Positions 17,404 through 58,932 of a stretch of DNA of 64,000 nt are shown piece by piece. The stretch comes from Aminithiophilus ramosus (lineage in GTDB: Bacteria; Synergistota; Synergistia; Synergistales; Aminithiophilaceae). Every line of letters begins with the position of its first letter. Position 1 is the stretch's first letter. The notes beneath the pieces were generated by a model that was given only the letters and a program-made list of their open reading frames with translations, did no database searches and was not told where the DNA came from. The stretch covers positions 2,481,453-2,545,452 of the forward strand of contig NZ_CP072943.1 of assembly GCF_018069705.1 (NCBI RefSeq), read 5' to 3'. Both the position numbers and the translations under genes were made by a program.

Positions 17404-18996
17404 CCGTCACCGTCGCGGTCGTTGTCTCTCCTGGGAGCGTGGGCATCCTGCCCGCGCCCGCCCCGAAGGGGCGGTGGGGTTTCCCACGCTTCGCCGTCGC
17501 CATCAAGGTTACGTCGTTCGAGCCGGGAGACCCTGCGGGACGGTGGCCCCGTCCCGCGCGCCGCCAAGATGGCCGCGCTCCCAGCAGGGGCAAAACCTCT
17601 CCGCCGGGAGGTTTTCTCGGGCATTCTATTGTCTCTGTTCGATTCGGAAGGAACGGAAGACTCCACGTCGCGGCTCTTGCTTCTCCTGGGAGCATCATCG
17701 TCTCGGCGCGCTTCGGAAAGAACGGAAAGTCCCGCGTCGCGGCCGTTGCCTCTCCTGGGAGCGTGGGCATCCTGCCCGCGCCCGCCCCGAAGGGGCGGCG
17801 GGGTTCCCACGCTTCGCCGTCGTTACTCAGGTGACGTCGTTCAAGCCGGGAGACCCTGCGGGACGGTGGCCCCGTCCCGCGCGCCGCCAGGATGGCCGCG
17901 CTCCCAGCAGGGGGCAAAACCTCAAGCTCCACGTCGCGGCCCTTGCTTCTCCTGGGAGCGTGGGCATCCTGCCCGCGCCCGCCCCGAAGGGGCGGCGGGT
18001 TCCCCACGCTTCGCCGTCGCCATCAAGGTTACGTCGTTCGAGCCGGGAGACCCTGCGGGACGAGAAATCCGTCCCGCGCGCCGCCAAGATGGCCGCGCTC
18101 CCAGCAGAGGCAAAACCTCAAGCTCCACGTCGCGGCTCTTGCCTCTCCTGGGAGCGTGGGCATCCTGCCCGCGCCCGCCCCGAAGGGACGGCGGGTTCCC
18201 CACGCTTCGCCGTCGCCATCAAGGTGACGTCGTTCAAGTCGGGAGACCCTGCGGGACGAGAAATCCGTCCCGCGCGCCGCCAAGATGGCCGCGCTCCCAG
18301 CAGGGGCAAAACCTCTCCGCGACCGAGTTCGTCTGCTTCCGGGCCAACCCTTCCGTCGCCGAGAGCTCGTTCCCAGCAGGGGCAAAATCCTTTCGCCACA
18401 AGGTTTTCCCGAGCACTCTATCGTCTCGGCCCGATTCGGAAAGAACGGGAAGACTCCACGTCGTGGCTGTTGCCTCTCCTGGGAGCATTATCGTCTCGGC
18501 CGCTTCGGAAGGAACGGAAGACTCCACGTCGCGGCCGTTGCCTTTCCTGGGAGCGTGGGCATCCTGCCCGCGCCCGCCCCGAAGGGGCGGTGGGTTTCCC
18601 ACGCTTCGCCGTCGTTACTCAGGTGACGTCGTTCAAGCCGGGAGACCCTGCGGGACGGTGGCCCCGTCCCGCGCGCCGCCAAGATGGCCGCGCTCCCAGC
18701 AGGGGCAAAACCTCTCCGCGACCGAGTTCGTCTGCTTCCGGGCCAACCCTTCCGTCGCCGAGAGCTCGTTCCCAGCAGGGGCAAAATCCTTTCGCCACAA
18801 GGTTTTCCCGAGCACTCTATCGTCTCGGCACGATTCGGAAAGAACGGGAAGACTCCACGTCGTGGCTGTTGCCTCTCCTGGGAGCATTATCGTCTCGGCC
18901 GCTTCGGAAAGAACGGAAAGCTCCGCGTCGCGGCCGTTGCCTCTCCTGGGAGCGTGGGCATCCTGCCCGCGCCCGCCCCGAAGGGGCGGTGGGGTC
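17404..18996 (+). repeat. REP/BIME-like repeat cluster 1
   Basis: This is a mosaic of six copies of the hairpin GGAGCGTGGGCATCCTGCCC plus the inverted partner hairpin ending CTCCCAG. They are joined by linkers containing the palindromes CCGCCCCGAAGGGGCGG and GCGGGACG...CGTCCCGC. In each typical unit the two hairpins face inward and carry GGAG at their outer feet. Longer spacer modules also recur inside the cluster: the block at about 18230-18560 reappears almost unchanged at 18600-18960. Long open frames through the cluster exist in several frames, but they only reflect GC-rich repeats and should not be annotated as proteins. Confidence 0.9.
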
Positions 18997-19131
18997 CTTA
19001 CGATGTCGCGCGTGAGGCGGAGACGGCCGAGGAACGGAGCGATCCGATCCCGACTTTCGAAATGTGCTAGACTTCAGACAAAGGGGCAGAGACCTCGGCT
19101 CCTCTGCCGACGTGAGGGAGGTGGCCCGTCT

Positions 19132-20265
19132 GTGAGAGAGGAAAAAGGCACCGCACCGAAGACCCCCTTCTCCTCGCCAGGGGCGGAAGGCACGGCTCAA
19201 AAGGATGCCGCCCGTCGAGGCGGCGGAAGGGACTCCCCGTCGCCGGAAGGGATTGCCGCCGGAGTCGCAGGACAGACTCCGCATGCCTCGGAGGACATCG
19301 CCGAAAGGACCGCATTCCGCCAGGACGACTCGCTCTGGAAAGACCTCCTCTCGCGATTCTTCGTCCCCATGCTCCGGTCCGTCCTTCCCGACCTGGCCTC
19401 CGACCTCGATCCGACTCGCCCCGTCACCTTCCTCGACAAAGAACTTCGCCGTCTCGCCCGGTTCACCCGAAAGGCCGAAGGGGGAGACCCCGACTCGAAC
19501 CGCTACGTCGACCTTCTGGCCGACGTCCCACTCGCGGAAGGAGAGAGCGCCTGGATTCTCCTCCACGCCGAAGTCCAGGGAAGGGGAGGCAACGAAAACT
19601 TCCCCCTCAGGATGCACCGCTACCGAGGCCTTCTTGAGGGGCGCTACCGAAGGCCCGTCGTCGGCTTGGCCTTCCTCATCGAGCCGCTCCCGCCGATCCA
19701 GTCGCAGGGCTGCTATCTTTGGGAACGATACGGCACCCGAGTCCTCTACGAATTCCCCGTCGTGAAGATCTTCGAAGGAGACGAAGAGAAACTGAAAGCC
19801 AGCGACAACCCCTTCGACCTGGCCCACCTGGCGGGCCTGCGCGCCTGGAAAAGCCGTGGGAACGAGGCGCGCAAGCTGGACTACCTGAAGGAAATGCTGC
19901 TTCTTCTCGACGATCGGGGCTGGAGCCACGACGAAAAGGCCCAGCTGCTTGTCTTCATGGAAGGCGTCATCCACATCACCGACGACGAGAGTTCCCGGGA
20001 ATACGAGGAATGGGAAGAGGAACTGGAACGGGACAAGGAGGCGAGACGCATGTATGTCAGCATCAGCGAGAGAAAAGGGATAAAGAAGGGCATGGAGAAG
20101 GGCATGGAAAAGGGCATGGAGAAAGGCATGGAAAAGGGAAGTGAACGCGCTCGGGTTCAGATGGCTGGCCGCATGCTGGCCCGGGGCATGGATGTGGCGA
20201 CCGTCGCCGATCTGACGGAGCTGCCCGAGAGTCGGGTGCGCGCTCTGGCCGAGGGGCGCGAATGA
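19132..20265 (+). CDS. Rpn-family PD-(D/E)XK nuclease/putative transposase
   Basis: 377 residues from the GTG at 19132, which has GGGAGGTGG upstream. After a Ser/Gly/Ala-rich N-terminus, the nuclease-like domain runs from about residue 62. It includes FLDKELRRLARF, YVDLLADVPL (Asp127) and LLHAEVQG (Glu147-x-Gln149), which match the D...ExQ active site of Rpn/transposase_31 proteins. A helical middle part leads to four tandem GMEK repeats (residues 319-336) and a C-terminal helix pair (MLARGMDVATVADLTELPESRV). E. coli Rpn proteins promote recombination and cleave DNA. The gene lies between two repeat clusters, as if inserted into one. Whether it acts on the repeats is unknown. Confidence 0.8.
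   Translation: MREEKGTAPKTPFSSPGAEGTAQKDAARRGGGRDSPSPEGIAAGVAGQTPHASEDIAERTAFRQDDSLWKDLLSRFFVPMLRSVLPDLASDLDPTRPVTFLDKELRRLARFTRKAEGGDPDSNRYVDLLADVPLAEGESAWILLHAEVQGRGGNENFPLRMHRYRGLLEGRYRRPVVGLAFLIEPLPPIQSQGCYLWERYGTRVLYEFPVVKIFEGDEEKLKASDNPFDLAHLAGLRAWKSRGNEARKLDYLKEMLLLLDDRGWSHDEKAQLLVFMEGVIHITDDESSREYEEWEEELERDKEARRMYVSISERKGIKKGMEKGMEKGMEKGMEKGSERARVQMAGRMLARGMDVATVADLTELPESRVRALAEGRE
20089..20137 (+). repeat. In-gene tandem 12-bp repeat encoding GMEK
   Basis: Four imperfect tandem copies of a 12-bp unit (AAGGGCATGGAG type) encode GMEKGMEKGMEKGMEKG near the C-terminus of the Rpn-like protein. Slippage here would change length by whole four-residue units and keep the frame. Confidence 0.85.
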
Positions 20266-20329
20266 GAGTCTTGTCCCTGCCCTGATTCGCGAGAGAGCGA
20301 AACACGAGGTCACTCCTCCTGGTAGTGCC

Positions 20330-20800
20330 ATTGTCGCGGCTCTTGCCTTTCCTGGGAGCATCATCGTCTCGGCCGCTTCGGAAGGAACGGAAAGCTCCAC
20401 GTCGCGGCCGTTGCTTCTCCTGGGAGCGTGGGCATCCTGCCCGCGCCCGCCCCGAAGGGGCGGCGGGTTCCCCACGCTTCGCCGTCGTTACTCAGGTGAC
20501 GTCGTTCAAGCCGGGAGACCCTGCGGGACGGTGGCCCCGTCCCGCGCGCCGCCAAGATGGCCGCGCTCCCAGCAAGGGGCAAAACCTCTCCGCGACCAAG
20601 TTCGTCTGCTTCCGGGCCAACCCTTCCGTCAGCGAGAGCGCGCTCCCAGCAGGGGCAAGACCTCTCCGCCGCGAGGGTTTCTTGGGTATTTTATAGTCTC
20701 TGTTCGCTTCGGAAGGAACGGAAAGCCCTGCGTCGTGGCCGTTGCCTTTCCTGGGAGCGTGGGCATCCTGCCCGCGCCCGCCCCGAAGGGGCGGCGGGGT
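20330..20800 (+). repeat. REP/BIME-like repeat cluster 2
   Basis: Two copies of the GGAGCGTGGGCATCC hairpin with their linkers and the inverted partner hairpin. It lies between the Rpn-like gene and the RAYT gene. The block at about 20566-20800 is nearly repeated at 22280-22520 on the other side of the RAYT gene. Confidence 0.88.
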
Positions 20801-20871
20801 TTCTGTGAGAGCCGCGTTTAAGCGGACAATCCACTACAAGCGGGAAGGGAGTCGAAAAGGAGGGAGGATGT

Positions 20872-21528
20872 GTGACAGACGACGGTGTGGAACTCCGATA
20901 CGAGGGCGAAAAGGGAACGCAATTTGATGAAGCTCCTTCTCTGCACTGCCGCGGTCGGCTTCCCCACTGGGAAGCGGGAGAGATGCCGCAGCACATCACG
21001 TTCCGCCTCGCCGATAGTCTGCCTCTTGCTCTTCGGGAGGAGTGGAGAGAGGAGGTCGCTCTGCTTAAAGGGGGCAAGCGTGACATAGAGAGACGAAGGA
21101 AGATCGAGGCAGCCCTCGACAGCGGGATCGGTGCCTGCTGGCTACGTCGACCGGAGATCGCTCGTGTCGTCGAAGAGGCCCTCCTCCATTTCGATGAAGA
21201 AAGGTATCATCTCCACGGGTGGGTTGTTATGCCGAATCATGTCCACGTCGTCGTAACACCTCGGCCAGATCGGTCTCTCTCCTCCGTCATCCATTCCTGG
21301 AAATCTTTTTCTGCCAACAGCATCAACCGGCTGCTCCATCAAAAGGGAAGGCTCTGGGCTGAGGAATATTTCGACAGAGCGATCCGCAATGAGAAACATT
21401 TCCGACGGACCCTCGCCTATGTCGCCGGGAATCCCGTCAAGGCCGGGCTCTGCCGTAACGAAGAGGACTGGCCTTTCAGCCATGCGGGAAAAGGGGAACA
21501 ATGGAGATGGGGACGGCCTGTCGAGTAA
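20872..21528 (+). CDS. REP-associated tyrosine transposase (RAYT, Y1/HUH family)
   Basis: 218 residues from the GTG at 20872, preceded by AGGAGGGAGG. The core shows the HUH motif PNHVHVVV (His123-x-His125), the upstream strand HLHGWVVM, the candidate nucleophile in EEYFDRAIRN (Tyr166), and the RAYT hallmark YVAGNPVKAGL. Size and motif order fit IS200-like RAYT proteins, which bind and nick REP hairpins next to a GTAG/GGAG tetranucleotide. All catalytic motifs look intact. The gene is flanked on both sides by repeat clusters whose hairpins carry GGAG feet, so it is the obvious candidate for their mobilisation. No direct-repeat insertion site for the gene was identified. Confidence 0.9.
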   Translation: MTDDGVELRYEGEKGTQFDEAPSLHCRGRLPHWEAGEMPQHITFRLADSLPLALREEWREEVALLKGGKRDIERRRKIEAALDSGIGACWLRRPEIARVVEEALLHFDEERYHLHGWVVMPNHVHVVVTPRPDRSLSSVIHSWKSFSANSINRLLHQKGRLWAEEYFDRAIRNEKHFRRTLAYVAGNPVKAGLCRNEEDWPFSHAGKGEQWRWGRPVE

Positions 21529-21579
21529 GCGGTGTCGAGAAAACCGACAAACCACCTCCTCCGAAATCTGTCATTTTTC

Positions 21580-21640
21580 TCGGAAACCCCAGTCGTCTCA
21601 CTGCTGCGACGGGATTTCCCGTAAACCCCAGTCGTCCTAG
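21580..21640 (+). repeat. Short direct repeat downstream of the RAYT gene
   Basis: AAACCCCAGTCGTC occurs twice, 40 bp apart, around the small palindrome ACGGGATTTCCCGT. A GGGGTTTC before the RAYT gene (about 20796-20803) is the inverted complement of GAAACCCC here. It might be part of the RAYT mobile unit, but the match is only 8 bp. Confidence 0.45.
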
Positions 21641-21651
21641 ACAGTGATGAT

Positions 21652-22672
21652 TTTCCCTGGGAGCGTGGGCATCCTGCCCGCGCCCGCCCCGAAGGGGCGG
21701 CGGGTTCCCCACGCTTCGCCGTCGTTACTCAGGTGACGTCGTTCAAGCCGGGAGACCCTGCGGGACGGTGGCCCCGTCCCGCGCGCCGCCAAGATGGCCG
21801 CGCTCCCAGCAGGGGCAAAACCTCTCCGCGACCGAGTTCGTCTGCTTCCGGGCCAACCCTTCCGTCGCCGAGAGCTCGTTCCCAGCAGGGGCAAAATCCT
21901 TTCGCCACAAGGTTTTCCCGAGCACTCTATCGTCTCGGCCCGATTCGGTAAGGAACGGAAGACTCCGCGTCGCGGCCGTTGCCTTTCCTGGGAGCGTGGG
22001 CATCCTGCCCGCGCCCGCCCCGAAGGGGCGGTGGGTTCCCTGCACGTCTCCCTCGCCGCCGAGGTTACGTCGTTCAAGTCGGGAAACCCTGCGGGACGAG
22101 AAATCCGTCCCGCGCGCCGCCAGGATGGCCGCGCTCCCAGCAGGGGCAAAACCTCTCCCGTAGCCAAGCTTGTGAACTCCGCACAGGGGCAAGACCCCTC
22201 ATCGCCGAGGGGACGTCGTTCAAGTCGGGAGACCCTGCGGGACGAAAGATCCGTCCCGCGCGCCGCCAAGATGGCCGCGCTCCCAGCAAGGGGCAAAACC
22301 TCTCCGCGACCAAGTTCGTCTGCTTCCGGGCCAACCCTTCCGTCAGCGAGAGCGCGCTCCCAGCAGGGGCAAGACCTCTCCGCCGCGAGGGTTTCTTGGG
22401 TATTTTATAGTCTCTGTTCGCTTCGGAAGGAACGGAAAGCCCTGCGTCGTGGCTGTTGCTTCTCCTGGGAGCGTGGGCATCCTGCCCGCGCCCGCCCCGA
22501 AGGGGCGGTGGGTTCCCTACACGTCTTCCTCGCCGCCGAGGGGACGTCGTTCGAGCCGGGAGACCCTGCGGGACGGTGGCCCCGTCCCGCGCGCCGCCAG
22601 GATGGCCGCGCTCCCAGCAGGGGCAAAACCTTTTCACCGGCAAGCCTGTGCGCTCCCAGCAGGGAGGCTGCC
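21652..22672 (+). repeat. REP/BIME-like repeat cluster 3
   Basis: Three copies of the GGAGCGTGGGCATCC hairpin with inverted partners and spacer modules shared with clusters 1 and 2. The last inverted hairpin ends within about 4-15 bp of the stop codon of the convergent ion-transporter gene at 22676. Confidence 0.88.
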
Positions 22673-22675
22673 TGA

Positions 22676-23947: not shown

Positions 23948-24026
23948 AGCAATTCTGCCTCCCCGTTATTGAAAGACACAACGGCCAGTCTACACCTCGT
24001 CAAGAGGGGGAGCAAGAGACCTAAAG

Positions 24027-24048
24027 AGTAAGAATAGTTCTTCTTATT
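24027..24048. promoter_or_regulatory. Inverted repeat (operator-like) in divergent intergenic region
   Basis: AGTAAGAA and TTCTTATT form an imperfect dyad around a 6-bp centre, 34 bp before the cobT-like start. It could be a regulator site for this gene or for the divergent transporter. No cobalamin riboswitch features were seen here. Confidence 0.35.
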
Positions 24049-24081
24049 CAATCATACCACGACAATTTCGAGGAGGTACGC

Positions 24082-25071: not shown

Positions 25072-25078
25072 GGTCACC

Positions 25079-26056: not shown

Positions 26057-26058
26057 CG

Positions 26059-26844: not shown

Positions 26845-26869
26845 GAGAGAACGGGTCCAGCGGAGTCCC

Positions 26870-27889
<1,020 letters not shown>

Positions 27890-27980: not shown

Positions 27981-30672
27981 ACGTGATGATTTTCCCGGGA
28001 GCGCTGTCGTCTCGGCCGTTTCGAAAGGGACGGAGATCTCCCGTCGCGGCTCTGGCCTTTCCTGGGAGCGTGGGCATCCTGCCCGCGCCCGCCCCGGAGG
28101 GGCAGTGGGTTTCCCACGCTTCGCCGCCGTTACTCAGGTGACGTCGTTCGAGCCGGGAGACCCTGCGGGACGATAGCCCCGTCCCGCGCGCCGCCAAGAT
28201 GGCCGCGCTCCCAGCAAGGGCAAAACCCTTTCGCCGCCGCGGTGTTTTCCTGGGAGCGCTGCCGTCCCTGTCGTTTCGAAAGGGACGAAGGATCTCCCGT
28301 CGCGGGTCTGGTTTTTCCTGGGAGCGTGGGCATCCTGCCCGCGCCCGCCCCGGAGGGGCGGTGGGTTTCCCACGCTTCGTCGTCGTTACTCAGGTGACGT
28401 CGTTCAGGACGGAGACCCTGCGGGACGATAGCCCCGTCCCGCGCGCCGCCAGGGATGGCCGCGCTCCCAGCAGGGGCAAAACCCTTTCGCCGCCGCGGTG
28501 TTTTCCTGGGAGCGCTGCCGTCCCTGTCGTTTCGAAAGGGACGAAGGATCTCCCGTCGCGGGTCTGGTTTTTCCTGGGAGCGTGGGCATCCTGCCCGCGC
28601 CCGCCCCGAAGGGGCGGTGGGTTTCCCACGCTTCGCCGTCGTTACTCAGGTGACGTCGTTCAGGACGGAGACCCTGCGGGACGATAGCCCCGTCCCGCGC
28701 GCCGCCAGGATGGCCGCGCTCCCAGCAAGGGCAAGATCCTTTCGCCGAGGTGACGTCGTTCGAGCCGGGAGACCCTGCGGGACGATAGCCCCGTCCCGCG
28801 CGCCGCCAGGGATGGCCGCGCTCCCAGCAGGGGCAAGATCCTCCGCCGCCGCGGTGTTTTCCTGGGAGCGCTGCCGTCCCTGTCGTTTCGAAAGGGACGA
28901 AGGATCTCCCGTCGCGGGTCTGGTTTTTCCTGGGAGCGTGGGCATCCTGCCCGCGCCCGCCCCGAAGGGGCGGTGGGTTTCCCACGCTTCGCCGTCGTTA
29001 CTCAGGTGACGTCGTTCAGGACGGAGACCCTGCGGGACGATAGCCCCGTCCCGCGCGCCGCCAAGGATGGCCGCGCTCCCAGCAAGGGCAAAACCCTCCG
29101 CCGCGATCGAGTTCGAGCGCTCCCAGCAAGGGCGAAACCCTCCGCCGCCGCGGTGTTTTCCTGGGAGCGTGGGCATCCTGCCCGCGCCCGCCCCGGAGGG
29201 GCAGTGGGTTTCCCACGCTTCGCCGCCGTTACTCAGGTGACGTCGTTCGAGTCGGGAGAGACCCTGCGGGACGAGAAATCCGTCCCGCGCGCCGCCAGGA
29301 TGGCCGCGCTCCCAGCAAGGGCAAAACCCTTCGCCGCAGCGGTGTTTTCCTGGGAGCGTGGGCATCCTGCCCGCGCCCGCCCCGGAGGGGCAGTGGGTTT
29401 CCCACGCTTCGCCGCCGTTACTCAGGTGACGTCGTTCGAGCCGGGAGACCCTGCGGGACGAGAAATCCGTCCCGCGCGCCGCCAGGGATGGCCGCGCTCC
29501 CAGCAAGGGCAAGATCCTTTCGCCGAGGTGACGTCGTTCGAGCCGGGAGACCCTGCGGGACGATAGCCCCGTCCCGCGCGCCGCCAGGGATGGCCGCGCT
29601 CCCAGCAGGGGCAAGATCCTTTCGCCGAGGTGACGTCGTTCGAGCCGGGAGACCCTGCGGGACGATAGCCCCGTCCCGCGCGCCGCCAGGGATGGCCGCG
29701 CTCCCAGCAAGGGCAAAACCCTTTCGCCGCAGAGTTCTCGTCTACTTCCGTGTCAAACCTTCCGTCGCCGACTGCGCGCTCCCGGCAAGAACAAAAACCG
29801 CGTCCGCAGCGGTGTTTTCCTGGGAGTGCTGCCGTCCCTGTCGTTTCGAAAGGGACGGAGATCTCCCGTCGCGGCTCTGGCCTTTCCTGGGAGCGTGGGC
29901 ATCCTGCCCGCGCCCGCCCCGAAGGGGCGGCGGGTTGCCCACGCTTCGTCGTCGTTACTCAGGTGACGTCGTTCGAGTCGGGAGAGACCCTGCGGGACGA
30001 GAAATCCGTCCCGCGCGCCGCCAGGGATGGCCGCGCTCCCAGCAAGGGCAAAACCCTTTCGCCGCCGCGGTGTTTTCCTGGGAGCGTGGGCATCCTGCCC
30101 GCGCCCGCCCCGAAGGGGCGGCGGGTTGCCCACGCTTCGTCGTCGTTACTCAGGTGACGTCGTTCAGGACGGAGACCCTGCGGGACGATAGCCCCGTCCC
30201 GCGCGCCGCCAGGATGGCCGCGCTCCCAGCAGGGGCAAGATCCTCCGCCGCCGCGGTGTTTTCCTGGGAGCGCTGCCGTCCCTGTCGTTTCGAAAGGGAC
30301 GAAGGATCTCCCGTCGCGGGTCTGGTTTTTCCTGGGAGCGTGGGCATCCTGCCCGCGCCCGCCCCGAAGGGGCGGCGGGTTGCCCACGCTTCGTCGTCGT
30401 TACTCAGGTGACGTCGTTCAGGACGGAGACCCTGCGGGACGATAGCCCCGTCCCGCGCGCCGCCAGGGATGGCCGCGCTCCCAGTAAGGGCAAAACCTTC
30501 GCCGCGATCGAGTTCGAGCGCTCCCAGCAAAGGCAACACCCCACGCCTCGGCGAAATGCGCTCCCAGCAGGGGCAAAACCCTCTCACAGCAAGCTCGCGG
30601 GCTCCCAGTGAGGAGAAGGCACTCCTCCGCTGCGACAGGCCGGACTTCGGCGAGGGCAAGGCCTTTCGCCGA
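27981..30672 (+). repeat. REP/BIME-like repeat cluster 4
   Basis: Nine copies of the GGAGCGTGGGCATCC hairpin with inverted partner hairpins. Linkers here carry CACGCTTCGCCGTCGTTACT-type sequence. A second spacer module (TGTTTTCCTGGGAGCGCTGC type, with CCGTCCCTGTCGTTTCGAAA) recurs several times. It fills the space between the epimerase start and the FeoB stop, ending about 17 bp from the latter. Its left boundary GTGATGATTTTCCC resembles that of cluster 3. Confidence 0.9.
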
Positions 30673-37197: not shown

Positions 37198-37350
37198 CAC
37201 AGGAAGAGAGGCCGGCTCCCAGAAGGGAGACGGCCTCTCGGCAAGACGTCCCTTCCTCCTTTCCGAACGCGGGAGGTGCCCTCGTTTCCGAAGACACCCC
37301 GGCCTGAAGACCATGGCCGAAGCTTTAGGTCACCAGGCTCGGAGGTTATT
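37198..37350 (-). ncRNA. Moco/tungsten-cofactor-type riboswitch upstream of the wtp operon
   Basis: On the minus strand the leader opens with CTCCGAGCC, has the hairpin ACCTAAAG region, and ends with the conserved CCTCCCGCGTTCGGAAAGG, matching the 3' core of Moco RNA in the E. coli moaA leader. The same blocks recur at 42911-43024 and 45288-45392. Downstream, GAGAGGCCG and CGGCCTCTC form a stem. The 3' arm CCTCTC can alternatively pair with GAGAGG of the wtpB ribosome site 7 nt further on. This suggests translational control. Moco versus tungsten cofactor as ligand is open. Confidence 0.82.
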
Positions 37351-37371
37351 GATCGTTTTCGCTGCGAGTAG

Positions 37372-37403: not shown

Positions 37404-38976
37404 GGTTTTTCGCCCCTCGCGGAAACGGGCCGCAGAGAGGTTTGGTCCCTGTCGGGAGCGTCCGAACTCGACCGCGAAAGGGTCTTGCCTCTGCCGGGAG
37501 CGCGCAGTCGGCGACGGAAGGTTGGACACGGGGGTAGACGAGAACTCTGCGGCGAAAGGGGCTTGCCCTTGCTGGGAGCGCTCGAACTCAATCGCGGCGG
37601 AGGTTTTGCCCTTGCTGGGAGCGCGGCCATCTTGGCGGCGCGCGGGACGGATCTTTCGTCCCGCAGGGTTTCCCGGCTTGGACGACGTCACCTCGGCGAC
37701 GACGGCGACGTGCGTGAAGACCCACCGCCCCTTCGGGGCGGGCGCGGGCAGGATGCCCACGCTCCCAGGAAAAACCAGACCCGCGACGGGAGATCCTTCG
37801 TCCCTTTCGAAGCTCCCAGGAAAACACCGCGGCGGCGGAGGTTTTGCCCTTGCTGGGAGCGCGGCCATCTTGGCGACGCGCGGGACGGATTTCTCGTCCC
37901 GCAGGGTCTCCCGACTCGGACGACGTCCCCTCGGCGGAGGGGTTTTGCCCCTGCTGGGAGCGCGGCCATCCTGGCGGCGCGCGGGACGGGGTTACCGTCC
38001 CGCAGGGTCTCCGTCCTGAACGACGTCACCTGAGTAACGACGGCGAAGCGTGGGAACCCCACCGCCCCTTCGGGGCGGGCGCGGGCAGGATGCCCACGCT
38101 CCCAGGAAAGGCCAGAGCCGCGACGGGAGATCCTTCGTCCCTTTCGAAGCTCCCAGGAAAACACCGCGGCGGCGGAGGGTTTTTCCCTTGCTGGGAGCGC
38201 TCGAACTCGATCGCGGCGGAGGTTTTGCCCTTGCTGGGAGCGCGGCCATCTTGGCGGCGCGCGGGACGGATTTCTCGTCCCGCAGGGTCTCCCGACTCGA
38301 ACGACGTCACCTCGGCGACGACGGCGACGTGCGTGAAGACCCACCGCCCCTTCGGGGCGGGCGCGGGCAGGATGCCCACGCTCCCAGGAAAGGCCAGAGT
38401 CGCGACGGGAGATCCTTCGTCCCTTTCGAAGCTCCCAGGAAAACACCGCTGCGGCGGAGGTTTCGCCCTTGCTGGGAGCGCTCGAACTCAATCGCGGCGG
38501 AGGTTTTGCCCTTGCTGGGAGCGCGGCCATCCCTGGCGGCGCGCGGGACGGATTTCTCGTCCCGCAGGGTCTCCCGACTCGAACAACGTCACCTCGGCGA
38601 CGACGGCGACGTGCGTGAAGACCCACCGCCCCTTCGGGGCGGGCGCGGGCAGGATGCCCACGCTCCCAGGAAAGGCCAGAGCCGCGACGGGAGATCCTTC
38701 GTCCCTTTCGAAACGGCAGGGACGACAGCGCTCCCAGGGGAAGCCGGCTACGGACGCGGTTTTTTGTTCTTGCTGGGAGCGCGCAGCCGGCGACGGAAGG
38801 TTGGACACGGGAGTAGACGAAAACTCTGCGGCGAAAGGATCTTGCCCTTGCTGGGAGCGCGGCCATCTTGGCGGCGCGCGGGACGGATTTCTCGTCCCGC
38901 GGGGTCTCCGTCCTGAACGACATCACCTGAGTAACGACGGCGACGTGCGTGAAGACCCACCGCCCCTTCGGGGAGG
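37404..38976 (-). repeat. REP/BIME-like repeat cluster 5 (reverse orientation)
   Basis: Four copies of the hairpin in reverse orientation relative to the other clusters, with inverted partners and a linker of the CGTGCGTGAAGACCCACC type. It ends about 10 bp from the stop codon of the tungstate ATPase gene. Spacer modules with TCGAACTCGATCGCGGCGG recur here and in cluster 6. Confidence 0.9.
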
Positions 38977-42900: not shown

Positions 42901-42910
42901 CGACGGGCCT

Positions 42911-43024
42911 GGAGCCCTCGATCCCTCCTTTCCGATCACGGGAGGCCCCCCCGTTTCCGGGAGAACCCGTCGGTCCGACGGCCTTGGGAAGTTCCTTTAG
43001 GCGGAATCGGACTCGGAGGCGTTA
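42911..43024 (-). ncRNA. Moco/tungsten-cofactor-type riboswitch upstream of the tup operon
   Basis: The minus strand has CCTCCGAGTCC at the 5' side, CCTAAAGGAAC, the stem CCGTCGG/CCGACGG, a GGAAAC-capped hairpin (CTCCCGGAAACGGGGG) and the 3' core GCCTCCCGTGATCGGAAAGG. These correspond block by block to the other two copies in this window and to Moco RNA. An intrinsic terminator follows at 42869-42900, so control is probably by transcription termination. It lies about 26 bp after the storage-protein gene; a TTGACC at that gene's stop codon may belong to its own promoter. Confidence 0.85.
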
Positions 43025-43049
43025 TGAAGAGGGGCCTCAAGCCCCCCGG

Positions 43050-45277: not shown

Positions 45278-45287
45278 AGCCAGCGAA

Positions 45288-45392
45288 TGAACGCATCTCC
45301 TTTCCAAACACGGGAGGCATTCTCGTTTCCAAGAATACCCATAGGCCGGATAACCGTGGGAAGACCTTTAGGTCCTCCGGCTCGGAGTCGTA
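45288..45392 (-). ncRNA. Moco/tungsten-cofactor-type riboswitch before the TiaS-like gene
   Basis: The clearest of the three copies. On the minus strand it carries CTCCGAGCCGGAGG, GACCTAAAGGTC, CCCACGG...CCG...TGGG, the hairpin ATTCTTGGAAACGAGAAT and the diagnostic CCTCCCGTGTTTGGAAAGG. A well-spaced promoter lies just upstream and an intrinsic terminator just downstream, so the whole regulatory leader is about 170 nt. It probably stops transcription when the cofactor is abundant. Confidence 0.88.
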
Positions 45393-45407
45393 TTCGATTG
45401 TGAAGTG

Positions 45408-45462: not shown

Positions 45463-46432
45463 GCGGGATCTTCCTGGGAGCGTGGGCATCCTTGCCCGCG
45501 CCCGGCCCGAAGGGACGGAGGGGTTCTCGGCACGTCTCCGCCATCGCCGAGGTGACGTCATTCAAGCCGGGAAACCCTGCGGGACGAGAAATCCGTCCCG
45601 CGCGCCGCCAAGATGGCCGCGCTCCCAGCAAGGGCAAAACCTCCGCCGCGATCGAGTTCGAGCGCTCCCAGCAAGGGCAAAACCCTCCGCCGCCGCGGGG
45701 TCTTCCTGGGAGCGTGGGCATCCTGCCCGCGCCCGGCCCGAAGGGACGGAGGGGTTCTCGGCACGTCTCCGCCATCGCCGAGGTGACGTCGTCCAAGCCG
45801 GGAAACCCTGCGGGACGAGAAATCCGTCCCGCGCGCCGCCAAGATGGCCGCGCTCCCAGAAAAGGCAAGACCCCGCCGCCGCGATCGAGTTCGAGCGCTC
45901 CCAGCAAGGGCAAAACCCTCCGCCGCCGCGGTGTTTTCCTGGGAGCGTGGGCATCCTGCCCGCGCCCGCCCCGAAGGAACGGAGGGGTTCTCGGCACGTC
46001 TCCGCCATCGCCGAGGTGACGTCGTCCAAGCCGGGAAACCCTGCGGGACGAGAAATCCGTCCCGCGCGCCGCCAAGATGGCCGCGCTCCCAGCAAGGGCA
46101 AAACCGCCGCCGCGATCGAGTTCGAGCGCTCCCAGCAAGGGCAAAACCCTCCTCCGCAGCGGGTTTTTCCTGGGAGCGTGGGCATCCTTGCCCGCGCCCG
46201 GCCCGAAGGGACGGAGGGGTTCTCGGCACGTCTCCGCCATCGCCGAGGTGACGTCGTCCAAGCCGGGAAACCCTGCGGGACGAGAAATCCGTCCCGCGCG
46301 CCGCCAAGATGGCCGCGCTCCCAGCAAGGGCAAAACCTCCGCCGCGATCGAGTTCGAGCGCTTTCAGCAAAGGCAAGACCCGCCGCGACCGAGCTTGGCT
46401 GTTTCAGCAGGGGCAAAACCTCTGTTTCCGCG
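45463..46432 (+). repeat. REP/BIME-like repeat cluster 6
   Basis: Four copies of the hairpin. Several copies have a cluster-specific change (GGCATCCTTGCCCGCG and GGCCCGAAGGGACGG), and linkers are of the CTCGGCACGTCTCCGCCATC type, not seen in the other clusters. Inverted partner hairpins are identical to those elsewhere. Confidence 0.9.
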
Positions 46433-51141: not shown

Positions 51142-51145
51142 GGCC

Positions 51146-52708: not shown

Positions 52709-52756
52709 TTCTTCGGACAACCTCCTCAGAAAGTAGGAACAGAACTTCATCAAGGT

Positions 52757-52786
52757 ATTATAGGGGCCTTCTCCCTCTTTCGTGAA
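52757..52786 (-). promoter_or_regulatory. Promoter of the opg operon
   Basis: On the minus strand TTCACG and a perfect TATAAT are separated by 18 bp, about 50 bp upstream of the opgG start. Confidence 0.55.
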
Positions 52787-53117
52787 GGGGCGGCACAAAA
52801 TCCGAAGCCACAGGCCCGACCGGGAGAGCTACGCAGGACCCCTCGATTGAAGGCGTTCCCCGACGCCTCGCCGGCGGGGATTCGGGCACGCGGCTCGGGT
52901 CTACGGCCGTTCCGCGGCGAATCTGGCGGAGTTTCGCCCCTTCCTCGCCCCGAGGAGGGGCTCCTGTCGTCAACGGGGCGGTCCCCCCGTGGAAGCCGAA
53001 GAAGCGACGGGACGCTTTTCCCCAGGCAGGACAGCAACGACCGTCGTCCCCGAAGCGAGAGGATGACGGCAAAGACCCGCACCACCTCATCGCGATTCAA
53101 GGAGGCCTCCCTTCAGC
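52787..53117. other. Intergenic region between opg promoter and divergent gene
   Basis: About 330 bp without a recognised gene. It ends in AAGGAGGCCTCC, a small palindrome that includes the ribosome site of the next gene. A plus-strand promoter must be present, but no convincing boxes were seen. Confidence 0.35.
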
Positions 53118-55013
53118 ATGAAGCGCCGCACGCTCCCTCTTCTCCTCTGTTCCCTCGTTCTTCTTTTCCCCCAGATGGCCCTCTGCGAGGCGCCTCCGGC
53201 CCCGGCTCCCGCGTCGGCTCCGGCGTCGGCTCCGGCCGAAAAAAAAGCCTACGACCCCCTCTACACCCTGCTGGCCCTGAACGCCTGCGTCGTCTCCGTG
53301 ACGGAAACCATCCATTACGGCGACCGTCTCGTCCTGGACCAGGAATACACCAATATCGTCAACAACATCCGCTTCGCCGACATCGAGGCCGACGAGGAGC
53401 TGATCACCCTTTTCCAGGCCCTGCTCTCGGCCCTTCACGACGGCCTTCTCCGGGAGGTCGAGAAGGAGGCTTTCCTCCGGACCTACCAGCGCAACATCAA
53501 GAAGGCCATCGTCGAGTCCCTTTCGGAGGCCTCCTCCACGGCCAGCGGGACCTACGGCGCCATCCTCGAAGGGGCCATAGCCGTGGGCACGACCTATTTC
53601 GACCACAAAAACCGGATGGAGGATTACCGCGCCGAACTGGGAGAAAACCTCTGGAGCCTCGACAAGGAGCGGCGGAACCTCCTCAACGACCTGCAGAAGC
53701 AGCTCCTGGCCGCCTCGTGGAAGCTGCAGCGGCGCTACAGGCTCGACGACGCTCTCCGCCTGAGCCAGCAGGACCTGGCCACCTTCAACGACGCCCTTTC
53801 CGATCGGGACGGGGAGCGTCGGCTGAGGCGGCTGGAACGGATGAAATCCCGTTTCGTCGCCTACCCCCCCTTCTGGTACATCCTGGGAAAGACGGCCCAG
53901 GATTTGGGGCGCGACGACGAGGCCCGGGCCGCCTACGAAACCTTCGAGAAAAACCGGCGGCCCCTCTTCCGTTACGATCCTTTCTACGCCGCCGTGGCGA
54001 TGAACCGCGCCGAGCTGCGTCGGGCCGACGAAAGAGAGGAGCTGGCCCGGGATCTGGAGATCCTCCTCGCCAACAGCCGCACCGAAGACGGAGCCAACAG
54101 GCTCTACGCGGGCCTGCGCTACCTCGACCTCCAGGATATCGAGCGGGCCAGGGCCTGTTTTCAGCAAAACGTCGACGAGGATTACGAAAAAGAGCTGAAC
54201 CTCTGGATTCTCGACTCCCTCGACGGCGGCGCGTCCCCTCAGGCCCTGGCCCAGGAGCTGCAGCGGGAGGCCGAGGCGCTGACGGAGCAGCTCCTGACCG
54301 AGAACGGACTGAGGAACCAGGATCTCCTCCTCCTCTACGACCGGGGGAAAGACGCGACGGTCCTCCGCCGGATCGAGAAGGATCTGGCCTCGATCCGCCT
54401 CGAGCTGGTGCGCCGCCGGGCCCAGCGGGACACGCTGGCCCTCAGTCTGCCCGAGGGATGGGTGGCGGGAACGGGCGCCTTTCAGCACGACAATCACTTC
54501 GCCCTCCGCGAGGGGACCTTCGAGGTCGTTCTTTCCTTCGGATCCGGACAGGAGGTGGCCCGCTTCCGCCCGGACGACGTCAGGCTTCTCGTCTCCGGGT
54601 CGGATCGTCTCTCGCCCAAAGGGGGCGAGCCCGTCATCGGCTACGACCCCGATCTTCACCTTTTCGCGGCCTACGCGGGGGGACACTTCCACTCGTCGCT
54701 GGAGGCGACGTTGGAGATCGTCGACGGCGACGACGCCCTAACCCTCGGTTTCACCGGGCACAAAGCGGACCCCGCTCTTTTCTCCGAGGGGAAGGGGCTG
54801 GACTACGCCGTTCCCGTCGTCGGCCAGATCCGCCTGTTGAAAGACCTTTTCAGGGACTCGTCCCGCGTCGTCACCGAGGCCGTCCTCTTCGAGCCCTCCT
54901 CCGTCCGGTACCGGGGCAAGGTCTGGGCCGTCGAAAAGGGACAGCTGTCGGAGGCGAAAGAGGAGACGGCGGAGGTCACAGCCCCAGCCAGGCGAGCCAG
55001 AGCGGGACAGTGA
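53118..55013 (+). CDS. Exported helical-repeat protein of unknown function
   Basis: 631 residues with a signal peptide (RRTLPLLLCSLVLLFPQMALC) and then a short Ala/Pro spacer (PAPAPASAPASAPA). The middle part is strongly alpha-helical with TPR-like hydrophobic spacing (FWYILGKTAQDLGRDDEARAAYETFEKNRR, NRLYAGLRYLDLQDIERARACFQQN). The C-terminal 150 residues are beta-rich (VSGSDRLSPKGGEPVIGYDPD) and may be a separate domain. No enzyme motif was found. Its divergent neighbour is the opg operon, so an envelope role is possible. Its 3' end overlaps the convergent carrier gene by 38 bp. Confidence 0.7.
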   Translation: MKRRTLPLLLCSLVLLFPQMALCEAPPAPAPASAPASAPAEKKAYDPLYTLLALNACVVSVTETIHYGDRLVLDQEYTNIVNNIRFADIEADEELITLFQALLSALHDGLLREVEKEAFLRTYQRNIKKAIVESLSEASSTASGTYGAILEGAIAVGTTYFDHKNRMEDYRAELGENLWSLDKERRNLLNDLQKQLLAASWKLQRRYRLDDALRLSQQDLATFNDALSDRDGERRLRRLERMKSRFVAYPPFWYILGKTAQDLGRDDEARAAYETFEKNRRPLFRYDPFYAAVAMNRAELRRADEREELARDLEILLANSRTEDGANRLYAGLRYLDLQDIERARACFQQNVDEDYEKELNLWILDSLDGGASPQALAQELQREAEALTEQLLTENGLRNQDLLLLYDRGKDATVLRRIEKDLASIRLELVRRRAQRDTLALSLPEGWVAGTGAFQHDNHFALREGTFEVVLSFGSGQEVARFRPDDVRLLVSGSDRLSPKGGEPVIGYDPDLHLFAAYAGGHFHSSLEATLEIVDGDDALTLGFTGHKADPALFSEGKGLDYAVPVVGQIRLLKDLFRDSSRVVTEAVLFEPSSVRYRGKVWAVEKGQLSEAKEETAEVTAPARRARAGQ

Positions 55014-55902
55014 CGACGGAGAGGACCGTCGTGGCGGCGACGACTTCGCCGGCGTAGGCGCTGTCCATATCCATGCCCTTGGCCAGGACGAAGTTGTTGA
55101 CGGCGCTGGGCATGGCCGTCGCCAGGATGACGGCGCCGGCCACATAGGGCTCGACGGGAAAAAAACGGAAGAGAAGGGCCATGACGGCGGGGTGGACGAA
55201 GAGGCGGAGGGTCACGTCGCGCCAGGCCGATCTCAGCGTGGCGAGGGGGCTCACGATGCGGATCGAGGCGCCCAGGGCGAGAAGGGCCAGAGCCGTCGCC
55301 AGGTCGCCGAGGATTTCCAGGAAGGCGTCGAGCCACCGGGGCAGGGTACCGAACCCCAGCAAGGAGGCCGAAACTCCGGCCAGGCAGGCCAGGAAGAGGG
55401 GGTTCAGGGCCACGGACCGGGCCGTTTCGACGAGGTGACGCCGAGAAAGACCGCCGGAAAGGGCGATCTGGGCCCAGGCGATGGAGAGCAGGTTGTAGGA
55501 AAAAAGCCCCACGGCGAGGTAGAGAGAGAGGGCTGCCACCCCCTCCGCCCCCAGGGCCAAGGCAACGACGGGAAGGCCCATGTAGACGTTGTTGGAGCGG
55601 ATCGAGACGAGGACGGAAACGGCGACGCGACGGCGCTCCTGACCGGCCAGGCGGGCCAGAAGCCAGGCCAGCGGCGGCATGAGGAAAAAGGAGAGATGAA
55701 TGGCGACGAAGAGGTTGCCGTTGAGAAGGACTTCGCCGCCGACGGCGATCGTCTTCCTGAAAAGGAGGGCGGGCAGGGAGACCCAGTAGAGAAGCCACAT
55801 GAGCTGCGGGGCCGTCTCCTCCTTCAGGTAGCCCCGGCGACGCAGGACCCAACCGAGAAGAACAGTGAGAAGAAGGGGAACGACGGCGGAAAGACCGGCC
55901 AT
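54976..55902 (-). CDS. AEC (auxin efflux carrier) family transporter
   Basis: 308 residues from the ATG at 55902 with GGAGGAGG upstream. Ten hydrophobic helices in two similar halves are expected from the sequence. The N-terminal LTVLLGWVLRRRGYLKEETAPQLMWLLYWVSLPALLF and RSNNVYMGLPVVALALG, and the C-terminal ATAMPSAVNNFVLAKGMDMDSAYAGEVVAATTVLSVVTVPLW, are AEC hallmarks. Bacterial members move malate, malonate or other organic acids; the substrate is open. It overlaps the convergent gene by 38 bp, and a repeat cluster lies about 110 bp upstream. Confidence 0.88.
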   Translation of the reverse strand: MAGLSAVVPLLLTVLLGWVLRRRGYLKEETAPQLMWLLYWVSLPALLFRKTIAVGGEVLLNGNLFVAIHLSFFLMPPLAWLLARLAGQERRRVAVSVLVSIRSNNVYMGLPVVALALGAEGVAALSLYLAVGLFSYNLLSIAWAQIALSGGLSRRHLVETARSVALNPLFLACLAGVSASLLGFGTLPRWLDAFLEILGDLATALALLALGASIRIVSPLATLRSAWRDVTLRLFVHPAVMALLFRFFPVEPYVAGAVILATAMPSAVNNFVLAKGMDMDSAYAGEVVAATTVLSVVTVPLWLAWLGL

Positions 55903-56009
55903 GGCGGAACCTCCTCCGATGGCCCTCGTCGGGGAGGGCTCCGGGATAGAGATGATGATAGCAGACGGGCCGGATAAAGGGGGAGCGCCGACACGTCCGC
56001 TCGTCAGAG

Positions 56010-58932
56010 CTTCCCCCGGAAACGCTGCCAACCGCGCCCGCAGCGAAGGGGCGGTGGTTCCCTGCACGTAACCGTCACCGCCGAGGGGACGTCGTCCGAG
56101 TCGGGAGACCCTGCGGGACGGTGGCCCCGTCCCGCGCGCCGCCAAGGATGGCCGCGCTCCCAGCAAGGGCAAAACCCCTCCGCCGCAGCGATGTTTTCCT
56201 GGAAGCGTTGTCCTCCCTGCCGTTTCGAAAGGGAGAAGGGGCTTTCGTCGCGGCTCTGGCCTTTCCTGGGAGCGTGGGCATCCTGCCCGCGCCCGCCCCG
56301 AAGGGGCGGTGGTTCCCTGCACGTAACCGTCACCGCCGAGGGGACGTCGTTCGAGTCGGGAGACCCTGCGGGACGGAGGACCTCCCGTCGCGGCTCTGGC
56401 TTTTCCTGGGAGCGTGGGCATCCTGCCCGCGCCCGCCCCGAAGGGGCGGTGGGGTTCCCTGCACGTAACCGTCGTCGCCGAGGGGACGTCGTTCGAGTCG
56501 GGAGACCCTGCGGGACGAGAAATCCGTCCCGCGCGCCGCCAGGATGGCCGCGCTCCCAGCAGGGGCAAGATCCCTCCGCCGCAGCGATGTTTTCCTGGAA
56601 GCGTTGTCCTCCCTGCCGTTTCGAAAGAGACGGAGGATCTCCCGTCGCGGCCTGGCCTTTCCTGGGAGCGTGGGCATCCTGCCCGCGCCCGCCCCGAAGG
56701 GGCGGTGGGGTTCCCTGCACGTAACCGTCGTCGCCGAGGGGACGTCGTCCGAGTCGGGAGACCCTGCGGGACGAGAAATCCGTCCCGCGCGCCGCCAGGG
56801 ATGGCCGCGCTCCCAGCAGGGGCAAGATCCTTTCGCCGCAGCGATGTTTTCCTGGAAGCGTTGTCATCCCTGCCGCTTCGAAAGGGAGAAGGGGCTTTCG
56901 TCGCGGCTCTGGCTTTTCCTGGGAGCGTGGGCATCCTGCCCGCGCCCGCCCCGAAGGGGCGGTGGGGTTCCCTGCACGTAACCGTCGTCGCCGAGGGGAC
57001 GTCGTTCGAGTCGGGAGACCCTGCGGGACGGTGGCCCCGTCCCGCGCGCCGCCAAGGATGGCCGCGCTCCCAGCAGGGGCAAGATCCTTTCGCCGCAGCG
57101 ATGTTTTCCTGGAAGCGTTGTCATCCCTGCCGCTTCGAAAGGGAGAAGGGGCTTTCGTCGCGGCTCTGGCTTTTCCTGGGAGCGTGGGCATCCTGCCCGC
57201 GCCCGCCCCGAAGGGGCGGTGGGGTTCCCTGCACGTAACCGTCGTCGCCGAGGGGACGTCGTTCGAGTCGGGAGACCCTGCGGGACGATAACCCCGTCCC
57301 GCGCGCCGCCAGGATGGCCGCGCTCCCAGCAGGGGCAAGACCCTTTCGCCGCAGCGATGTTTTCCTGGAAGCGTTGTCCTCCCTGCCGTTTCGAAAGGGA
57401 CGGAGGATCTCCCGTCGCGGCCTGGCCTTTCCTGGGAGCGTGGGCATCCTGCCCGCGCCCGCCCCGAAGGGGCGGTGGTTCCCTGCACGTAACCGTCACC
57501 GCCGAGGGGACGTCGTTCGAGTCGGGAGACCCTGCGGGACGGTAACCCCGTCCCGCGCGCCGCCAGGATGGCCGCGCTCCCAGCAGGGGCAAGACCCCTC
57601 CGCCGAGGGGACGTCGTCCGAGTCGGGAGACCCTGCGGGACGAGAAATCCGTCCCGCGCGCCGCCAGGATGGCCGCGCTCCCAGCAGGGGCAAGATCCCT
57701 CCGCCGCAGCGATGTTTTCCTGGAAGCGTTGTCCTCCCTGCCGTTTCGAAAGAGACGGAGGATCTCCCGTCGCGGCCTGGCCTTTCCTGGGAGCGTGGGC
57801 ATCCTGCCCGCGCCCGCCCCGAAGGGGCGGTGGGGTTCCCTGCACGTAACCGTCGTCGCCGAGGGGACGTCGTCCGAGTCGGGAGACCCTGCGGGACGAG
57901 AAATCCGTCCCGCGCGCCGCCAGGGATGGCCGCGCTCCCAGCAGGGGCAAGATCCTTTCGCCGCAGCGATGTTTTCCTGGAAGCGTTGTCATCCCTGCCG
58001 CTTCGAAAGGGAGAAGGGGCTTTCGTCGCGGCTCTGGCTTTTCCTGGGAGCGTGGGCATCCTGCCCGCGCCCGCCCCGAAGGGGCGGTGGGGTTCCCTGC
58101 ACGTAACCGTCGTCGCCGAGGGGACGTCGTTCGAGTCGGGAGACCCTGCGGGACGGTGGCCCCGTCCCGCGCGCCGCCAAGGATGGCCGCGCTCCCAGCA
58201 GGGGCAAGATCCTTTCGCCGAGGGGACGTCGTTCGAGTCGGGAGACCCTGCGGGACGATAGCCCCGTCCCGCGCGCCGCCGCACCGGGCCGCGCTCCCAG
58301 CAGGGGCAAAACCCCTCCGCCGCAGCGATGTTTTCCTGGAAGCGTTGTCCTCCCTGCCGTTTCGAAAGGGAGAAGGGGCTTTCGTCGCGGCTCTGGCTTT
58401 TACTGGGAGCGTGGGCATCCTGCCCGCGCCCGCCCCGAAGGGGCGGTGGTTCCCTGCACGTAACCGTCGTCGCCGAGGGGACGTCGTTCGAGTCGGGAGA
58501 CCCTGCGGGACGGTAACCCCGTCCCGCGCGCCGCCAGGATGGCCGCGCTCCCAGCAGGGGCAAGACCCTTTCGCCACAGCGATGTTTTCCTGGAAGCGTT
58601 GTCCTCCCTGCCGCTTCGAAAGGGAGAAGGGGCTTTCGTCGCGGCTCTGGCTTTTCCTGGGAGCGTGGGCATCCTGCCCGCGCCCGCCCCGAAGGGGCGG
58701 TGGGGTTCCCACGCTTCGCCGTCGTTACTCAGGTGACGTCGTTCAGGACGGAGACCCTGCGGGACGATAACCCCGTCCCGCGCGCCGCCAGGATGGCCGC
58801 GCTCCCAGCAGGGGCAAGATCCTTTCGCCGAGGGGACGTCGTTCGAGTCGGGAGACCCTGCGGGACGGTAACCCCGTCCCGCGCGCCGCCAAGGATGGCC
58901 GTGCTCCCGGCGAGGGCAAAACCCCACGCCCC
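56010..58932 (+). repeat. REP/BIME-like repeat cluster 7
   Basis: The largest cluster, with about ten copies of the hairpin, linkers of the CTGCACGTAACCGTCGTCGC type and a spacer module TGTTTTCCTGGAAGCGTTGT. Segment 56491-57096 appears identical to 57616-58221, an offset of 1125 bp. The final copy returns to the CACGCTTCGCCGTCGTTACT linker of cluster 4. It ends about 7 bp from the stop codon of the SNF2 helicase gene. A continuous reverse-strand frame of 902 codons through it is an artefact of composition. Confidence 0.92.

What the first reader, a model, noticed from the sequence alone, without database searches (positions are those of the whole stretch)
17404..58932. About 38 BIME-like units fill roughly 18% of the window
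Each typical unit is two different imperfect hairpins in inverted orientation. One starts GGAG-GCGTGGGCA-TCC-TGCCCGCGC; the other, read on the opposite strand, starts GGAG-GCGCGGCCA-TC-TTGGCGGCGC. GGAG therefore faces outward at both ends, like the GTAG/GGAG feet of REP pairs. The linker contains two further palindromes. This density is far above ordinary BIME occupancy and was not explained by any gene.
Basis: partly seen in the sequence, partly recalled or inferred. Interest (0 to 1): 0.85.

Follow-up and report, generated by a model that had tools for sequence, protein, structure and literature searches.

The report
GGAG-footed REP repeats around their transposase
A bacterium of the phylum Synergistota carries arrays of short hairpin repeats clustered around the one transposase gene that probably made them; they are a known kind of genome parasite (REP/BIME elements), but with an unusual recognition tag that proves common in this branch of the family.

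Summary
The repeats are real. Hairpin A (GGGAG-CGTGGGCA-TCC-TGCCCGCG) and inverted hairpin B (GGGAG-CGCGGCCA-TCT-TGGCGGCG) sit 121-125 nt apart as a ~150-bp unit in seven arrays covering 16.6% of the window. Genome-wide there are 109 A and 62 B (reversed-pattern control 0), in 21 arrays, 0.87% of 3.1 Mb. Fifteen of 21 arrays lie within 105 kb of the genome's only Y1_Tnp match, a RAYT at 20872-21528 with arrays on both sides. A same-species strain shares all 21 sites; unit counts differ at 20. So this is a REPtron: RAYT plus BIME/REPIN arrays; clustering near a rayt gene is already published. What departs from the literature searched is the foot, GG[AG]G instead of GT[AG]G. A survey of related RAYTs shows it is no local oddity: in a 110-protein tree 55 of 55 RAYTs with a readable foot on the window's side have G at foot base 2; the other side has 30 GT and 10 GG. 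GG-footed relatives mostly carry Gln where E. coli TnpAREP has Trp14 and GT-footed ones mostly Tyr, but this link is confounded by ancestry and Tyr does not exclude GG. Binding and cleavage were not tested. New variant of a known kind.

The parts
20872..21528 (+). RAYT (REP-associated tyrosine transposase), 218 aa, GTG start; HVH at residues 123-125, Y183..NP; the only Y1_Tnp match in the genome
   Evidence: NCBIfam NF047646 100.3 bits vs cut-off 80; Pfam Y1_Tnp 38.3 vs 23; one match at E<=1 in own genome; PDB 4er8 TnpAREP E 3.2e-11; residue numbers
17430..18995 (+). array 1 (A+ B- polarity, 6 A, 5 B)
20348..20803 (+). array 2, directly upstream of RAYT (2 A, 1 B)
21656..22631 (+). array 3, directly downstream of RAYT (3 A, 4 B)
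28061..30580 (+). array 4 (9 A, 4 B)
37600..38976 (-). array 5, opposite polarity (4 A, 5 B)
45473..46339 (+). array 6 (2 A, 4 B)
56032..58923 (+). array 7, the longest (10 A, 6 B)
17433..17459 (+). hairpin A of the first unit: GGGAG foot, 8-bp stem with one G-T pair, TCC loop; CT immediately outside
   Evidence: the CT is invariant in 60 of 60 aligned units
17557..17582 (-). hairpin B of the first unit: GGGAG foot, 8-bp stem with a G-G mismatch, TCT loop; CT immediately outside
   Evidence: each of the two CT letters is kept in 59 of 60 units
17458..17474 (.). linker palindrome 1, CCGCCCC-GAA-GGGGCGG (some stem letters vary between units)
17535..17557 (.). linker palindrome 2, GCGGGACG..CGTCCCGC, eight stem pairs invariant in 60 units, loop variable

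Best explanation
A REPtron: one chromosomal RAYT (HUH/Y1 single-strand transposase) with its own population of REP hairpins, arranged as inverted A-B pairs (a ~150-bp REPIN/BIME unit) that were copied mostly into gaps near the gene and then amplified into tandem arrays. Inferred mechanism: when a unit is single-stranded, the RAYT binds hairpins A and B, reads the 5' foot GGAG in place of the usual GT[AG]G, nicks at the invariant CT just outside each foot, and joins or recopies the released unit. Present-day change is mainly gain and loss of units inside existing arrays. Shown here: anatomy, genome-wide count, RAYT identity and flanking, clustering, shared sites with differing unit counts, foot class in relatives. 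Inferred: binding, nicking, copying, and which process changes array length.
For: RAYT equivalog hit over cut-off, single Y1_Tnp match in the genome, arrays on both sides. 109 A and 62 B genome-wide vs 0 control. Fixed A-B spacing, and one polarity within each of the 21 arrays. 15 of 21 arrays within 105 kb of the RAYT (expected 1.4; P 1e-13; 12 of 18 without the three nearest, P 1e-10; arrays treated as independent, which duplication may violate). 21 of 21 sites shared with strain L-13, 20 of 21 differ in A or B count. Two congeners with 63-65% identical RAYTs have different but like-built GG[AG]G hairpins around theirs, and pattern A is absent from both. Planctomycetia relative (RAYT 54% identical): 142 copies (<=3 mismatches) of a GGGG-footed hairpin genome-wide, control 0, inverted pairs visible among the listed places. 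CT conserved outside both feet, the dinucleotide that E. coli TnpAREP cleaves (PMC8266576, passages).
Against: No insertion site found in only one of the two strains, so present-day transposition is not shown; one L-13 A match (2401363, 3 mismatches) lies outside the compared intervals. The foot is not GT[AG]G, which E. coli TnpAREP requires strictly (as GTAG), though the group 3 enzymes tolerate some foot changes. Own RAYT has Ala at the conserved Q95 position. The congeners show no CT directly outside their feet (by eye). Stems A and B hardly vary within the species, so there is no covariation to support them there (2 of 43 pairs of the whole-unit fold). The Planctomycetia RAYT has a stop inside its match and may be broken.
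Confidence: 0.9

Rival explanations
1. The RAYT made the units once; arrays now grow and shrink only by replication slippage or unequal recombination of tandem repeats, without RAYT. (A rival about present dynamics only; it shares the REPtron identity.)
For: All 21 sites shared, 20 of 21 differ in unit number; arrays repeat private inter-unit sequence along with the units (e.g. the 399-nt period at 18150-18948).
Against: RAYT is letter-identical in both strains and has no stop in either congener.
Confidence: 0.5
2. The arrays are kept for a host role (terminators, mRNA stabilisers, gyrase or nucleoid sites), the RAYT being domesticated.
For: Strong RNA fold; none of the seven window arrays lies between divergent genes by simple ORF scoring plus Pfam.
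Against: Clustering round the RAYT is not expected of a general function; of the arrays outside the window one (2404143-2406037) lies between divergent reading frames by the same scoring.
Confidence: 0.2
3. MITE of another transposase or another repeat class, with the RAYT beside it by chance.
For: The unit carries several palindromes and a linker of about 100 nt.
Against: Arrays hug the RAYT on both sides; foot + 8-nt arm + short loop is shared with hairpins flanking RAYTs in other phyla.
Confidence: 0.03

Closest known systems
E. coli REPtron (rayT/TnpAREP with GTAG y/z REPs)
   Same: Y1 HUH RAYT (4er8 the best PDB match), gene flanked by REPs in both orientations (L109), W94 and R104 equivalents kept
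   Different: foot GGAG not GTAG; Gln40 where E. coli has Trp14; 8-bp stems; long local arrays
Marinomonas REPtrons and other RAYTs with REPs gathered near the gene (Nunvar 2010, PMC2817692, section 8 and passages; Corneloup 2021, PMC8266576, section 26 and passages)
   Same: REPs concentrated near the rayt gene (at most ~200 kb in Nunvar), read there as recent local production
   Different: other phylum; foot GGAG, where Corneloup gives GTAG for Marinomonas
P. fluorescens SBW25 REPINs (PMC3116915, passages)
   Same: two inverted REPs as replicative unit; tandem REPIN clusters beside RAYTs; tandem arrays of up to 12 REPs
   Different: largest ordered REPIN cluster there is four units (over 700 bp); here up to 16 hairpins in 2.9 kb; the linker carries its own hairpins
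Class 3 TnpAY1 with CnGA feet (Quentin 2018, PMC6006769, passages)
   Same: foot other than GT[AG]G, hairpins in high copy
   Different: class 3 has Y----Q; here Y---NP, the class 2 signature

Membership tests
RAYT (TnpAREP) proteins | Y1 HUH transposase, class 2 signature HuH and Y---NP, over the curated model score | tested here: met
   NF047646 100.3 bits >= 80; H123-V-H125, Y183, N187-P188
REPtron | RAYT gene flanked by REPs present in many copies in the genome | tested here: met
   arrays at 20348-20803 and 21656-22631; 109 A and 62 B genome-wide
BIME / REPIN | two REPs in inverted orientation at fixed distance as the repeated unit | tested here: met
   A+>B- 122-125 nt in 20 of 20 neighbouring pairs in the window; 63 units with spacing 118-125
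BIME / REPIN | mobility of the unit | tested here: inconclusive
   no site found in only one of two strains; unit counts vary at 20 of 21
GTAG REP superfamily (Di Nocera 2013, PMC3733652) | GTAG tetranucleotide at one end | tested here: not met
   GGGAG at the A foot in 60 of 60 aligned units and at the B foot in 59 of 60; therefore not filed there
REPtron | foot-guided cleavage by the RAYT at CT | not testable with these tools
   sequence only: CT outside the A foot in 60 of 60, outside the B foot 59 of 60 at each letter
BIME-1 | IHF site between the REPs | not tested
   -
Domesticated RAYT | single copy per genome, kept in the genus | tested here: met
   one match in each of the 4 genomes of the genus that were searched; synteny not tested

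The most novel reading that the evidence does not exclude
RAYTs fall into branches that read different guide feet. A large branch (Synergistota and the phyla of the Planctomycetia and Verrucomicrobiia relatives) uses G-G-N-N where described systems use G-T-[AG]-G, and recognition of base 2 shifted with an aromatic-to-glutamine change at the start of strand beta1 (E. coli Trp14). Guide specificity of a domesticated single-strand transposase could then be re-aimed by one residue.
Probability: 0.35. Interest if true: 0.65.

Novelty: new variant of a known kind. Interest (0 to 1): 0.48.

Why it matters
The REP predictor of PMC6006769 is built on 66 families that all have GTAG or GTGG feet (passage), so GG-footed REP populations may be overlooked by such tools. 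A natural set of RAYTs paired with GG or GT feet makes the question of how RAYTs choose foot and cleavage site testable with simple oligonucleotide assays, and two same-species genomes with 21 shared, length-variable arrays offer a system to tell RAYT-driven from recombination-driven array growth.

Tried and rejected
Rejected: repeats only in this window; a genome-wide excess (0.87%); foot read as CTGG (the rule 'foot ends 8 nt before the 2-4-nt loop' fits the relatives and gives GGAG); one residue as sole determinant of the foot. On the last: with 39 by-eye labels the foot class needed one change on a 68-row tree (shuffles 9.7), and position 40 split cleanly (Q in 26 of 28 GG rows, gaps in the other 2; Y in 11 of 11 GT rows). 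The planned test on 60 further loci (RAYT found in 49) kept Q->GG (17 of 17 called, 1 uncalled) but broke Y->GT (13 GT, 6 GG, 5 uncalled); V 2 GG; C 1 GG and 1 uncalled; H 1 GT; N 1 GT; gap 1 GT. The independent-pairs test was not significant.

Led nowhere: AlphaFold model of the RAYT (mean pLDDT 45.9; used only to note a strand at 40-46); Rfam over 17000-59000 (no match to the repeats); one unit against phages and plasmids (no match); the RAYT against plasmids (one 27% match, not pursued); covariation within the species; distant Synergistota RAYTs (no repeated hairpin found by the script in the 7 of 12 with a recognisable motif). A rule linking foot to flanking dinucleotide across relatives was looked at by eye only and showed no clear pattern.

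Weak points: feet of the first set were read by eye (60 loci of relatives and congeners with a RAYT found: 27 GG, 11 GT, 1 mixed L104, 21 no call; L052 and L081 had no recognisable motif; L063 and L091 are the loci of L003 and L004). A second look at 22 rows was made after the residues had been printed: 10 Q all GG, 1 H GG, 3 Y GT, 1 Y GG, 1 ambiguous, 5 none, 1 mixed. The script agreed with the eye on 35 of 38, disagreed on 1 (L099) and gave no call on 2. For the 110-row tree I left out the 7 distant Synergistota RAYTs, and labels mix by-eye and script calls; a regular expression there misread the residue in 5 rows (L007, L080, L116, L118, L126), so residues are taken. For three arrays (1.916, 1.941, 2.404 Mb) the L-13 interval was set by hand from neighbouring alignments. 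Listings are capped; that my fetched stretches hold all copies rests on equal counts (109 and 118). Papers that may mention GGAG feet and were not seen: Ton-Hoang 2012 (recalled, not looked up), Messing 2012 and Bertels 2017 (looked up by recalled DOI, not held). Word-start searches could miss a foot written inside a longer pattern.
Full report
Observation. Hairpin A (GGGAGCGTGGGCATCCTGCCCGCGCCC) and hairpin B (GGGAGCGCGGCCATCTTGGCGGCGCG) occur in the window as 36 A and 29 B copies. They form seven arrays at 17430-18995, 20348-20803, 21656-22631, 28061-30580, 37600-38976, 45473-46339 and 56032-58923, together 16.6% of the window. Within a unit A and B are inverted and 121-125 nt apart; between units the gap varies from 64 to 276 nt; each array has one polarity. 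Sixty distinct units align with a mean column identity of 86%: both REP hairpins and the stem of the second linker palindrome are nearly invariant, the first linker palindrome varies a little, the middle of the linker varies most. One unit folds as a long stem, A end pairing with B end, carrying the linker hairpins; ssDNA z -5.3, RNA z -7.1, 0 of 200 shuffles as stable in either.

Genome context. The window is 2481453-2545452 of a 3.108-Mb single contig. A has 109 matches at <=3 mismatches (0 for the reversed pattern), B has 62. The 21 arrays I fetched hold the same numbers, 109 and 62, and sum to 27.0 kb, 0.87% of the genome; a DNA search shows further diverged arrays near 2.374, 2.479, 2.822 and 2.847 Mb. 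The genome has one Y1_Tnp match, the ORF at 20872-21528, called RAYT by NCBIfam over the curated score. Fifteen of 21 arrays lie within 105 kb of it (expected 1.4). Clustering near a rayt gene is already reported for marine gammaproteobacteria and Thauera (PMC2817692, section 8) and Marinomonas (PMC8266576, passages).

Strain comparison. The tool's same-species genome G021 is CP074691.1, Synergistota bacterium strain L-13. Its RAYT is letter-identical. All 21 array sites are shared; A or B counts differ at 20 (own 109 A and 62 B; L-13 117 and 60 in these intervals). Sites at 1.941 and 2.404 Mb gave no syntenic flank pair, and the interval at 1.916 Mb was set by hand as well. One L-13 A match at 2401363 (3 mismatches) lies outside the intervals and was not compared. 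So arrays change length while sites persist; no strain-specific array was found.

Relatives. Two genomes of the same genus have RAYTs of 63-65% identity. Around them lie hairpins of the same build but other sequence, such as CGGAG-CGCGGCCA-TCT-TGGCCGCG, GGGG-CGCGGACG-TCT-CGTCCGCG and, inverted, GGGG-GGCGGGCG-TCT-CGCCCGCC, with a linker palindrome. A pattern for them matches 80 and 10 places in these two genomes (control 0), and also 69 and 68 places, mostly B hairpins at 1-2 mismatches, in the own genome and L-13; pattern A has 0 matches in both congeners. The nearest named relatives outside the phylum, a Planctomycetia MAG (54%) and a Verrucomicrobiia MAG (45%), are flanked by GGGG-GGCGGGCA-TCC-TGCCCGCC and GGAG-CGCGGACT.. 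hairpins; the former has 142 matches in its genome, though its RAYT has a stop inside the match. RAYT relatives at E<=1e-8 occur in 112 of 392 genomes drawn from the first MAG's phylum and 170 of 387 from the second's; the phyla of these sets are named here only through the two MAG titles.

Foot survey. Of 60 loci of these relatives and congeners with a recognisable RAYT I read 27 feet as G-G-N-N (GGAG, GGAA, GGAC, GGGG, GGTA, GGTG), 11 as G-T-N-N, 1 mixed, 21 not readable. On a tree of 68 RAYTs (quick search, SH-aLRT only) the class needs one change (shuffled labels 9.7; 0 of 500 as low), SH-aLRT 98 on that branch. The column aligned to own Gln40 holds Q in 26 of 28 GG rows (gaps in 2; own included) and Y in 11 of 11 GT rows. 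E. coli RayT, whose flanking feet are GTAG, has Trp14 there; beta1 is one of the regions that touch GTAG in TnpAREP (PMC8266576 section 26). That Trp14 itself touches base 2 is not known to me from any call.

Planned test. With the foot rule and prediction noted beforehand, 60 further loci were fetched and feet called by script: RAYT found in 49. Q->GG 17 of 17 called (1 uncalled); Y->GT 13, Y->GG 6, 5 uncalled; other residues 6 rows and one gap. On a tree of 110 RAYTs, 95 of them labelled, the foot needs 6 changes (shuffled 25.7, 0 of 500 as low). The side with the window's RAYT (63 rows, weak support 79) has GG in 55 of 55 labelled rows; the other side (47 rows) has 30 GT and 10 GG. The independent-pairs test of residue against foot found 3 pairs on supported branches and is not significant. 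So foot class is strongly clustered by ancestry, GG feet also occur outside the Gln branch, and residue 40 is a lead, not a shown determinant.

How it works. By analogy with TnpAREP (strand-specific cleavage and strand transfer at CT beside the hairpin; PMC8266576, passages), I infer that this RAYT nicks at the conserved CT outside GGGAG. In the guide model discussed there, the last two foot letters, AG, select CT (supported for Marinomonas Mb, not shown for E. coli); GGAG keeps AG, so the same cleavage site is expected although base 2 differs. The same paper finds GTAG indispensable for the E. coli enzyme but foot changes tolerated in part by the group 3 enzymes. Binding, nicking and copying are inferred.

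Novelty. RAYT, REPtron, BIME arrays, REPINs and clustering near rayt are known. The held papers describe REPs by GTAG/GTGG (or CGTC, CnGA, or unspecified atypical) feet (PMC3733652 passages; PMC6006769 passages and sections 13 and 14). GGAG as a word start occurs 0 times in the main texts of PMC3733652, PMC6006769, PMC2817692 and PMC8266576, and the search listing gives 0 for PMC3116915, PMC3686654, PMC3390384, PMC8049555 and PMC8450116. Di Nocera 2013 reports GTAG repeats in Verrucomicrobia and Planctomycetes. Searches behind the statement that I found GG feet nowhere in print; key papers not held are named under Tried and rejected. Verdict: new variant of a known kind.

Noticed in passing
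window 19132-20265 (+) and G000:C1:2438196-2439326 (-): An Rpn-like gene (TIGR01784, 42.0 bits, below its 52.1 cut-off; no Pfam match) in two ~99% identical copies, each between REP arrays on both sides, with the like in strain L-13; a possible passenger moved or gene-converted through the arrays.
   Followed up: partly
window 37240-37356, 42909-43030, 45281-45399 (-): Three molybdenum-cofactor (Moco) riboswitch matches within about 8 kb, in a stretch with ABC-transporter genes.
   Followed up: no
G000:C1:2822296-2822989: Diverged array with a GGAC-footed variant (GGACCGTGGCCATCCTGGCCGCG), four copies 103 nt apart.
   Followed up: no
L088 (genome G657, phylum of the Verrucomicrobiia MAG): RAYT-flanking hairpin CCTGGGAGCGCGGGCGTCC nearly identical to the window's CCTGGGAGCGTGGGCATCC although the RAYTs share only 44%.
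   Followed up: no
L103 and L104: L103: Tyr at position 40 with a GGAG foot; L104: GTAG and GGAA feet side by side at one RAYT; possible intermediates of foot change.
   Followed up: partly
L007 and L008 versus the window: RAYT neighbours look different in the three species of the genus (by eye only), so the RAYT cassette may have moved although it is kept.
   Followed up: no
G000:C1:1907021-1910856 and 2374116-2375656: Clusters of further Rpn-like reading frames related at the C-terminal end.
   Followed up: no
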